Notes under the pieces: generated by a model
The model's input: the letters and a program-made list of their open reading frames with translations, nothing else
Databases searched by the model: none
Told to the model about the DNA's origin: nothing
NCBI RefSeq assembly: GCF_003846445.2
Contig: NZ_CP030139.2
Span: 558,001 to 622,000 of the forward strand
Direction of reading: 5' to 3'
Length of the DNA stretch: 64,000 nucleotides
From: Synechococcus elongatus PCC 11801
GTDB taxonomy: Bacteria; Cyanobacteriota; Cyanobacteriia; Synechococcales; Synechococcaceae
Shown: in pieces, positions 20 to 2,869 of the stretch
How the letters are laid out: every line of letters begins with the position of its first letter
How positions within the stretch are numbered: the first letter of the stretch is position 1
Made by a program: the position numbers and the translations under genes

Positions 20-709
20 GTGGCTGATTTACCGTCTGATTTTGACCTTGCCCCCTACATTGAGCACTCCCTGCTCGACCCCGCAGCCACCCTTCAGCAG
101 ATTGAGCAGCTTTGCCAAGAAGCCGATCGCTATCACTTCGCTGCAGTCTGTGTCTTTCCTTGGGTGGTGCGCCAAGCGCGGGAGTGGTTGAACGGGCGAT
201 CGCCTCGACTCTGCACGGTAATTGACTTTCCGAATGGCGCGAGCACGGCTGCCAGCAAGTGCTTCGCCGCTCAGGAAGCGGTCGAAAATGGGGCGCAAGA
301 ACTCAATGTCGTCGTCAACCTTGGCTGGTTGCGTAGCGACCGCGCTGATCTGGTTCACCAAGAACTGGCTGAAATAGTCGAGGCCACTGGCGTTCCGATC
401 AAGGCCATTCTCGAAGCCACGCGACTCAACCCCAGCGAACTGGAGCAACTGACTGACCTCTGTTTGGATGCAGGCATTACGATGCTGCAAATCAGTACAG
501 GTTGGTTTGGTGGTGCAACGCCTGCTTTGGTTCAACAACTACGGCAGCTGACCCGCAATCGTGTTGGTATTCACGCGGCGGGGGGCATTCGCACCTGGGA
601 CCAAGCAGCAGATCTGATCGAAGCGGGTGCCGTGCGGCTGGGGACATCCTATGGCCCCTTAATCCTTCAGCAACGGCTGGCTGATGCTGCTGTGGCGGCA
701 TCAGTGTGA
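20..709 (+). CDS. DeoC-family (deoxyribose-phosphate aldolase-like) protein, catalytic residues replaced
   Basis: This 229-residue protein aligns by eye along its whole length with cyanobacterial DeoC, a cytoplasmic TIM-barrel aldolase that splits 2-deoxyribose-5-phosphate into acetaldehyde and glyceraldehyde-3-phosphate. Family landmarks are present: the [11 protein letters not shown] start, the [14 protein letters not shown] strand, STGWFGGAT and AAGGIRT near the C terminus. At the three catalytic positions, however, the usual Asp is Asn96, the Schiff-base Lys is Gln157 and the second Lys is His185; I checked the codons AAT, CAA and CAC. Classical aldolase chemistry is therefore unlikely. 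The start is GTG, and the stop overlaps the recO start by four bases (GTGA), so the two are probably co-transcribed and translationally coupled. The family is sure; the function is open. Confidence 0.85.
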
Positions 710-1506
710 GTCGGACCTACACCACGACTGCGATCGTGCTTAAAGCCACGCCCTTGGGTGAGGCCGATCGCCTGCTAACCCTGCTCTCACCCGATCAAGG
801 ACTGCTGCGTGTCGTGGCAGCGGGTGCTCGTAAACCGCGATCAAAGTTGGGGGGCCGCACCGCCCTATTTGTCGTGGGGGAGTGCCTGATTGCCTGTGGC
901 AAAAGCCTCGATCGTCTCCAACAAGTCGAAACCCTGAGCAGCCACACTGCCCTCAGTGGCGACTTAGCCCGTCTAGCAGCAGCGCAATACTTAACTGAGC
1001 TAGTACTGGCCCAAGCCCTCGAGCGACACCCACAACCCGAACTCTTCGCATTACTCTGCCGCGATTTGGCACGACTCGAAACTCAGTCTGGCCTCGAAGT
1101 CCTACCCTATCTGCTGCACAGCACTTGGCAACTGTTGGCCTGGGCAGGCTGGGCGCCGCAAACGCACTACTGCTGCCTGACCCAGCAAGCCGTGCAACCG
1201 CGCTTGAATCAACCGCGCTGGCGCGTGCGCTACAGCCCAAGCTTGGGCGGTGTGTTGTCCGAGTCGGCAGCCTATCAGCGTCGCCCCAATCAGCGAGAAT
1301 TGTTATTAACCGCCACGGAGTTGGCTGCTTTGCAACAAATTCCTACGAGTGAAACCGTGCTAGCGCTGGATCGCTTGTCCTGCGACGGCTGGCAAATATT
1401 AGAGCGAGCGCTTCGCCACTCCGCCGAGTATCATCTGGAACGGCCCTTACAATCAGCGCTGTTACTAGAAACCTTGCTGACAGGATCCCATGTCGCCTCT
1501 GTCTGA
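706..1506 (+). CDS. recO: DNA repair protein RecO
   Basis: RecO is a cytoplasmic recombination mediator that works with RecR (and RecF) to load RecA on SSB-coated single-stranded DNA. The 266-residue product has the expected N-terminal OB-fold, opening with [22 protein letters not shown], then the helical C-terminal region with [19 protein letters not shown]. The four-cysteine zinc site seen in many RecO proteins is not evident; only the CC pair near residue 150 is present. The GTG start overlaps the deoC-like stop, and the 3' end overlaps the next gene by 17 bases, so this is the middle gene of a compact run. Length is normal for the family. Confidence 0.92.
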
Positions 1507-2869
1507 GTCTGTTCTAGAACAGCCACCAACGCCAGAGCATGCTTGTGACCCAACGGCCCCGCTTGATGTTGCTAAGGACGAGATGAAGGCTCAGCCGTCA
1601 CCTGTGGGTCGAACTGGATTTTGGCCCGTACTCCGCAATCCCAATTTTTTGGCGTTGTGGCTGGCAGAAATCTTTTCGCAGATGGCGGACAAGATCTATT
1701 TGGTCTTGATGATTGCCTTGATCAGCAGCCGCTTCCAGGTTGAGGGTCAACCAATCAGCGGCTGGGTTTCGGCCATTATGATTGCCTACACCATCCCTGC
1801 AGTGCTGTTTGGCTCTCTCGCCGGTGTCTGGGTCGATCGCGGTCCCCTCAAGCAGGTCTTGATCTGGAGCAACGTCATCCGAGGCGTGATGGTGTTAGCC
1901 ATTCCCTTGTTGCTCTACGTGACAGAGGGGCAAACTTGGCTGTTTGGACAGCCGGTCGGTTTTCAAATTCTGCTGACGATTACCTTTCTAGTCTCGACGC
2001 TCAACCAGTTCTTTTCGCCCGCTGAACAGGTTGTCATTCCCTTGATTGTGCGGCGATCGCATCTCCTCGCAGCCAACTCGATTTACACCACCACCACAAT
2101 GGGGGCGACGATCATTGGCTTTGCAGTCGGTGAACCTCTGTTGCGCCTGGCCGATCACCTGTTGCTTCAGGTCGGGATTGGTGAGGGCAAAGAGGTTCTT
2201 GTGGGTCTCTTTTACGTTCTCTCAGGGCTGGTATTTATCGGTCTGCGCTTGCGTCCCCGCGATCGCAGTCGCATGAGCGATCGCCACCTTTGGGTCGATG
2301 TGATGGACGGCCTGCACTATCTCCAGCAACAGCCCTTGGTGCGCTCAGCGATGGTGCAGCTAGTGATCCTGTTTTCCGTCTTTGCGGCACTGGCTGTTCT
2401 CGCGGTTCGGCTCGCAGAGCTGATTCCAAATCTGGGTGCTGATCAGTTTGGAATTCTGCTCTCGGTGGCTGGTTTAGGGATGGGCATTGGTGCCTTACTC
2501 GTCGGCCAGTTTGGCCAACGGTTTTCCCGCCAGCGGCTTGCCCTTGGCGGTTCTATTGGCATGGCGATCACGCTAGCTGTGTTGGGCTGCCTAGAACCCA
2601 GCATGACGGGCAGCGTCATCTGCATTACGACACTGGGCATTTTTGCGGCAGCGCTGGGGATTCCCATGCAGACGGTCATTCAAGAAAAAACGCCAACGGA
2701 CATGCGTGGCAAGGTCTTTGGGCTGCAAAATAACGCGATTAACATTGCACTGAGCCTGCCGCTCGCCCTGGCGGGTCTTGCAGAAAGTTGGCTGGGTTTG
2801 AGTGCGACGTTGCTGGGATTAGCAGCGATCGTCCTGTTGGGGAGCTGGCTGAGCCCAGGCCGCGCCTAG
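1490..2869 (+). CDS. Major facilitator superfamily transporter (MFS_3/DHA3-like)
   Basis: This 459-residue integral membrane protein has about twelve hydrophobic segments after a roughly 40-residue polar N-terminal tail. The first helix region (FWPVLRNPNFLALWLAEIFSQ) and the following GSLAGVWVDRGPLKQVLIWSN loop carry the MFS loop 2-3 signature (G-x3-D-R). The pattern fits the MFS_3 group, which includes EntS-type exporters and many cyanobacterial permeases of unknown substrate. The ATG start lies inside the recO coding end, which suggests co-expression with recO. I cannot assign a substrate; proton-driven export is inferred from the family. Confidence 0.85.
   Translation: MSPLSESVLEQPPTPEHACDPTAPLDVAKDEMKAQPSPVGRTGFWPVLRNPNFLALWLAEIFSQMADKIYLVLMIALISSRFQVEGQPISGWVSAIMIAYTIPAVLFGSLAGVWVDRGPLKQVLIWSNVIRGVMVLAIPLLLYVTEGQTWLFGQPVGFQILLTITFLVSTLNQFFSPAEQVVIPLIVRRSHLLAANSIYTTTTMGATIIGFAVGEPLLRLADHLLLQVGIGEGKEVLVGLFYVLSGLVFIGLRLRPRDRSRMSDRHLWVDVMDGLHYLQQQPLVRSAMVQLVILFSVFAALAVLAVRLAELIPNLGADQFGILLSVAGLGMGIGALLVGQFGQRFSRQRLALGGSIGMAITLAVLGCLEPSMTGSVICITTLGIFAAALGIPMQTVIQEKTPTDMRGKVFGLQNNAINIALSLPLALAGLAESWLGLSATLLGLAAIVLLGSWLSPGRA

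What the first reader, a model, noticed from the sequence alone, without database searches (positions are those of the whole stretch)
20..709. DeoC homologue with all three catalytic residues replaced
The frame is intact, conserved along its full length and coupled to recO, yet the aldolase Asp is Asn96, the Schiff-base Lys is Gln157 and the proton-relay Lys is His185. Loss of all three in an otherwise well-kept barrel suggests a pseudo-enzyme with a new binding or regulatory role, or a different lyase chemistry. Co-expression with recO hints at nucleotide salvage or repair sensing.
Basis: partly seen in the sequence, partly recalled or inferred. Interest (0 to 1): 0.8.

Follow-up and report, generated by a model that had tools for sequence, protein, structure and literature searches.

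The report
Cyanobacterial aldolase without its catalytic lysine
A gene annotated as a DNA-sugar-cleaving aldolase has lost every residue that does the chemistry in this cyanobacterium, and the same key lysine was lost separately in several other cyanobacteria, including marine Synechococcus and Prochlorococcus, yet the protein is still preserved, so it probably does something other than its label says.

Summary
Confirmed. Window 20-709 encodes an intact DeoC (2-deoxyribose-5-phosphate aldolase, DERA) in which E. coli D102/K167/K201 are N96/Q157/H185. It is the genome's only DeoC. The other species of its genus has the same three residues (92% identical; dN/dS 0.04), so this is no sequencing error. 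DERA chemistry should be impossible: the protein has only two lysines, neither at the Schiff-base site.

It was lost at least four, probably five or six times: S. elongatus group (Q), marine Synechococcus/Prochlorococcus (Q), a Thermostichus-like family (M), Trichodesmium (V), one further genome (Q). All of these keep deoC directly before recO; wherever testable it is under purifying selection. In the marine clade the phosphate-gripping positions are 99% kept while the rest of the pocket decays. All 35 readable DeoCs from non-photosynthetic sister classes keep D/K/K.

Best reading: a pseudo-aldolase that still binds a phosphorylated ligand but no longer cleaves it. Ligand and role are unknown. 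A role in repair or salvage is not shown, since the recO neighbour is a general feature of cyanobacterial deoC. The gene is non-essential in S. elongatus PCC 7942 (PMC5464585).

The parts
20..709 (+). deoC pseudogene-like but intact: DERA-fold protein, 229 aa, without the class I aldolase triad
   Evidence: AlphaFold2 mean pLDDT 97.1; best PDB matches are DERAs, TM 0.89-0.91, rmsd 1.0-1.2
62..64 (+). E15 (E. coli D16); also E in many DeoCs that keep D/K/K
305..307 (+). N96 in place of the catalytic Asp (E. coli D102)
401..403 (+). K128 (E. coli K137), one of only two lysines in the protein; kept in all D/K/K cyanobacterial DeoCs
488..490 (+). Q157 in place of the Schiff-base Lys (E. coli K167)
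572..574 (+). H185 in place of the proton-relay Lys (E. coli K201)
500..502 (+). G161 of the kept phosphate-binding loops (with G188, G189, G208, T209, S210)
581..586 (+). G188-G189, kept phosphate-binding loop
641..649 (+). G208-T209-S210, kept phosphate-binding loop
706..1506 (+). recO, start overlaps the deoC stop (GTGA)
1490..2869 (+). MFS transporter, third gene of the conserved deoC-recO-MFS-glycosyltransferase block
   Evidence: same order in L217 and L221
2916..4067 (+). GT4 glycosyltransferase, fourth gene of the block

Best explanation
The protein is a pseudo-aldolase: a correctly folded DERA barrel, vertically inherited as the cyanobacterial DeoC, that can no longer form the Schiff base with deoxyribose 5-phosphate or acetaldehyde. 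Shown by sequence: loss of all three catalytic residues, single copy, same loss in the sister species, purifying selection, and at least four independent losses of the same lysine in other cyanobacteria. Inferred: it still binds a phosphorylated small molecule (or a partner protein through the same surface) by its kept phosphate loops, and the selected function is this binding, for example sensing, sequestering or scaffolding. This function probably already existed beside catalysis in the ancestral cyanobacterial DeoC, which is why catalysis could be shed repeatedly while the gene stayed. Ligand and partner are unknown.
For: Triad N/Q/H by alignment to PDB and E. coli DERA. K167 makes the covalent bond, and D102 and K201 take part in proton transfer, in DERA (PMC8403123). 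Only two lysines in the whole protein. Only DeoC in the genome. dN 0.042, dS 0.986, dN/dS 0.043 between the two species, against 0.056 for recO and about 0.05 for the MFS gene. Other lysine-less clades: Thermostichus-like family median 0.060, marine Synechococcus genera 0.07-0.19, Prochlorococcus 0.20, against about 0.03-0.27 in clades that keep the lysine. Census of 210 cyanobacterial DeoCs: 61 lack the lysine, in five groups. Careful tree: 6 changes of state (bootstrap 5-6); AU test rejects joining the S. elongatus pair with the marine Q clade (p = 0.00025), the M family (p = 0.027) and L154 (p = 0.041). Six phosphate-loop positions are 99% kept in the lysine-less marine Synechococcus and in Prochlorococcus, against 58% and 33% for other conserved positions (permutation p 0.00015 and 0.0009). 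Models of the window protein and of a Prochlorococcus DeoC are confident barrels closest to DERA. No genome of 390 passes the deoB cut-off, so the canonical deo catabolic route is not in place. Sister classes: 35 of 35 readable DeoCs keep D/K/K.
Against: No binding, structure with ligand or phenotype is known. The phosphate-loop positions are mostly glycines and may be kept for the fold; they are also fully kept in clades that have the lysine. The gene is reported non-essential in S. elongatus PCC 7942 (PMC5464585), so any function is dispensable in the laboratory. 19 of 390 genomes show no DeoC match. K128 could in principle act as another amine.
Confidence: 0.62

Rival explanations
1. Slowly decaying relic: the aldolase reaction is no longer needed, and the open frame is held only because translation of recO depends on it (GTGA overlap) or because decay is slow.
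For: deoC and recO overlap by 4 bases. The canonical deo pathway is absent. The gene is non-essential in PCC 7942 (PMC5464585). Prochlorococcus DeoC is very diverged (57.7 bits to TIGR00126, under the cut-off).
Against: Coupling would not keep amino acids, yet dN/dS is 0.036-0.060 in the S. elongatus and Thermostichus-like groups, as in lysine-keeping relatives. 57 of 65 conserved positions are kept. Lysine-less clades are old (whole genera and most of the marine family) and the frame is intact in all of them.
Confidence: 0.18
2. A different reaction: the N/Q/H pocket, perhaps with K128 as a moved amine, catalyses another lyase, isomerase or hydratase reaction on a phosphorylated sugar.
For: The replacements are all polar, fixed in both species of the genus; K128 is kept in the S. 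elongatus, Thermostichus-like, Trichodesmium and L154 proteins. Phosphate loops are kept.
Against: The combination N/Q/H is found in one genus only, while other lysine-less lineages carry Q, M or V in otherwise different pockets, which fits loss better than one new chemistry. K128 is also lost in the marine clade. No metal-binding set is apparent in the sequence (inference).
Confidence: 0.13
3. Ordinary DERA whose catalytic residues were misaligned, or sequence errors.
For: High score to the DERA equivalog model.
Against: Ungapped alignment around all three sites; no other lysine near; same residues in an independently sequenced sister species.
Confidence: 0.02

Closest known systems
Deoxyribose-phosphate aldolase (DERA, DeoC, EC 4.1.2.4; TIGR00126, PF01791)
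   Same: Full-length homology, same barrel (TM 0.89-0.91 to solved DERAs), phosphate loops, C44 (E. coli C47) and K128 kept
   Different: Schiff-base Lys, relay Lys and catalytic Asp all replaced (Q157, H185, N96)
DeoC of marine Synechococcus and Prochlorococcus
   Same: Also lacks the Schiff-base lysine, with Gln at the same position; phosphate loops kept; same deoC-recO-MFS-glycosyltransferase block
   Different: Relay lysine kept, Asp kept or Glu; rest of the pocket much more changed; independent loss
Pseudoenzymes kept as regulators or partners, such as trypanosome AdoMetDC prozyme (mentioned in PMC6221367)
   Same: Catalytically dead relative of a known enzyme held by selection
   Different: No active paralogue in the genome to be regulated; mechanism unknown

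Membership tests
DERA (class I aldolase, EC 4.1.2.4) | Homology over the full length and TIM-barrel fold | tested here: met
DERA (class I aldolase, EC 4.1.2.4) | Schiff-base lysine (E. coli K167) | tested here: not met
   Q157; role of K167 from PMC8403123
DERA (class I aldolase, EC 4.1.2.4) | Proton-relay lysine (K201) and Asp (D102) | tested here: not met
   H185 and N96
DERA (class I aldolase, EC 4.1.2.4) | Phosphate-binding loops | tested here: met
   G161, G188, G189, G208, T209, S210 kept
DERA (class I aldolase, EC 4.1.2.4) | Cleavage of deoxyribose 5-phosphate | not testable with these tools
   needs purified protein
Pseudoenzyme | Catalytic residues lost in an otherwise conserved fold | tested here: met
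   57 of 65 conserved positions kept, triad lost
Pseudoenzyme | Kept by purifying selection after the loss | tested here: met
   dN/dS 0.043 between two species that share the loss
Pseudoenzyme | A demonstrated non-catalytic function | not testable with these tools
   no data found in the library

The most novel reading that the evidence does not exclude
Cyanobacterial DeoC in general carries a second, non-aldolase function (binding a phosphorylated metabolite or a partner), old enough to have preserved the protein through at least four independent losses of the Schiff-base lysine, and in Prochlorococcus and marine Synechococcus it is the only function left.
Probability: 0.5. Interest if true: 0.75.

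Novelty: new variant of a known kind. Interest (0 to 1): 0.6.

Why it matters
The protein is labelled deoxyribose-phosphate aldolase by curated models at scores far above the cut-off (window 208.9, L154 223.9, L159 239.5 bits against 117.3), and published work on Prochlorococcus and on cyanobacterial core genes treats it as a sugar-degrading enzyme (PMC5974335 lists deoC under sugar degradation; PMC5464585 counts DERA as conserved but non-essential). For the lysine-less lineages that reaction should be removed from metabolic reconstructions. Repeated loss of the same catalytic lysine, with the gene and its place kept, is a natural experiment that separates catalysis from some other function of a widespread core gene.

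Tried and rejected
Sequencing error: rejected by the sister species. A second normal deoC: none. One shared origin of Gln157 in the S. elongatus group and the marine clade: not rejected on a large quick tree (p = 0.31, but that search was poor, one constrained tree even scored higher), rejected on a careful 46-row tree (p = 0.00025). Trichodesmium and L154 as one loss: not rejected (p = 0.75), although they carry V and Q and a genome of L154's own genus keeps K, hence 'at least four'. D16 to E15 as a fourth catalytic loss: dropped, because 27 sister-class DeoCs with D/K/K also have E. recO linkage as a clue to function: weak, since it is common to lysine-keeping cyanobacteria and absent in 40 sister-class loci. 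Genome-contig scan gave only 5 loci. Five of 40 sister-class sequences could not be read at the triad because of misalignment.

Full report
What is there. Window 20-709 is an intact 229-residue frame with a GTG start. It matches the NCBIfam equivalog deoC (TIGR00126) with 208.9 bits against a cut-off of 117.3, Pfam DeoC and solved DERAs at up to about 43% identity. The window lies at 558001-622000 of contig 1 of a 2.80 Mb genome, and this is its only DeoC. AlphaFold2 gives a confident barrel (mean pLDDT 97.1) that superposes on solved DERAs with TM 0.89-0.91 and rmsd 1.0-1.2.

The catalytic residues. Alignment with PDB DERAs and with E. coli MG1655 DeoC places N96 at D102, Q157 at K167 and H185 at K201. 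In DERA, K167 forms the covalent bond to the aldehyde, and D102 and K201 take part in protonation and deprotonation (PMC8403123); K167 and K201 are ion-paired with D102 and D16 (PMC4693242). All of this charge arrangement is altered here. D16 is E15, but E is also found in sister-class DeoCs with an intact triad. The whole protein has two lysines, K80 and K128. Of 65 positions that are at least 90% conserved in D/K/K cyanobacterial DeoCs, 57 are kept; the 8 changed ones include the triad (P = 0.0013). So the change is aimed at the active site and is not general decay.

Not an error, and under selection. The other held genome of the genus (G001; its length, 2,696,255 bases, equals that of S. 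elongatus PCC 6301 as I remember it) has the same N/Q/H at 92% identity. Between the two, dN is 0.042, dS 0.986 and dN/dS 0.043, against 0.056 for recO and about 0.05 for the next gene (Nei-Gojobori, so approximate). The loss predates the split and the protein has been conserved since.

Recurrent loss. A census of about 210 DeoCs from Cyanobacteriia gives D/K/K as the main state. The Schiff-base lysine is absent in 61: Q in both members of the S. elongatus group; Q (one I) in all 49 marine-type sequences of family f2, which include the small Prochlorococcus-like genomes, while 15 other members of f2 keep K; M in seven sequences of f5 (two chromosome lengths match Thermostichus-type strains JA-3-3Ab and JA-2-3B'a from memory); V in two Trichodesmium MAGs; Q in one genome of f24 (L154), whose own genus also holds a K sequence (L130). 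On a careful tree without the catalytic columns, the lysine changes six times (bootstrap 5-6). AU tests reject joining the S. elongatus pair with the marine Q clade (p = 0.00025), with the M family (p = 0.027) and with L154 (p = 0.041). A larger quick tree did not reject the first of these, but its search was poor. Trichodesmium and L154 could not be separated by the test. I therefore claim at least four independent losses, probably five or six. In sister classes 35 of 35 readable sequences keep D/K/K, so loss is derived.

Selection in the other lysine-less groups. Within-genus dN/dS medians are 0.060 (M family), 0.07-0.19 (marine Synechococcus-type genera) and 0.20 (Prochlorococcus), overlapping those of lysine-keeping genera (0.03-0.27). 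For L154 and Trichodesmium there were no suitable pairs. In the marine clade, six phosphate-loop positions are 99% kept, whereas other conserved positions fall to 58% (marine Synechococcus-type) and 33% (Prochlorococcus); permutation p 0.00015 and 0.0009. Most of these positions are glycines, so a structural reason is possible. The Prochlorococcus protein is still predicted to be a DERA-like barrel (pLDDT 92.9, TM 0.92 to DERA) although it scores under the DERA cut-off (57.7 bits).

Surroundings. deoC and recO overlap by GTGA at 706-709. recO follows deoC in 157 of 215 loci, in every lysine-less one, and in many with a full triad; in none of 40 sister-class loci. The block deoC-recO-MFS transporter-GT4 glycosyltransferase is found in the window, in L217 and in the marine L221. 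Upstream in the window's genome lies a polyketide-cyclase/lipid-transport-type (SRPBCC) protein (L216 9236-10006); in L221 it is a ribosome-hibernation-type protein (my reading of the sequence, not tested). The recO neighbour is therefore an old cyanobacterial feature and gives no special hint at repair. The canonical phosphopentomutase deoB passes its cut-off in none of 390 genomes, so a full deo catabolic route is not evident even where DeoC looks active.

What it most likely does. Shown: it lacks the residues that DERA catalysis needs, is conserved, and belongs to a pattern of repeated loss. Inferred: the retained function is non-catalytic binding, most likely of a phosphorylated small molecule at the kept loops; this function probably predates the losses. 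Not known: ligand, partner, pathway. The rivals are a relic kept by slow decay or by coupling to recO, against which the low dN/dS speaks; and a changed chemistry, for which there is no positive evidence but which cannot be excluded because K128 is kept in four of the five groups.

Known before? A library of 5.39 million open papers gave no report of a catalytically dead DERA in cyanobacteria; subscription papers are not covered. PMC5464585 reports DERA as conserved but non-essential in S. elongatus PCC 7942; PMC5974335 lists Prochlorococcus deoC under sugar degradation. I rate it a new variant of a known kind (a pseudoenzyme), with interest because of the recurrence and the ecological weight of the organisms.

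Noticed in passing
L047-L100 (family f2, marine Synechococcus- and Prochlorococcus-type genomes): Schiff-base lysine of DeoC replaced by Gln (once Ile) in all 49; relay lysine kept, Asp kept or Glu; Prochlorococcus DeoC so diverged that it falls under the NCBIfam cut-off.
   Followed up: yes
L158, L159, L161, L163, L164, L166, L168 (family f5): Schiff-base lysine replaced by Met; one family member (L167) keeps Lys. dN/dS about 0.06.
   Followed up: partly
L051 and L054 (family f2, lysine-keeping branch): Only the relay lysine is changed (Ser, Glu) while the Schiff-base Lys and Asp are kept.
   Followed up: no
L151, L155, L156, L160, L165, L170-L175: Catalytic Asp is Glu with both lysines kept; of these, the f13, f30 and f33 loci (L160, L170-L175) show no recO next to deoC.
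   Followed up: partly
G164, G231, G301 (genus g98, family f23): No DeoC match in three genomes of one genus with small genomes; deoC may be lost there.
   Followed up: no
L216 9236-10006 (upstream of the window): SRPBCC/polyketide-cyclase-type gene ends 14 bases before the deoC start, possible first gene of the operon in this genus.
   Followed up: partly
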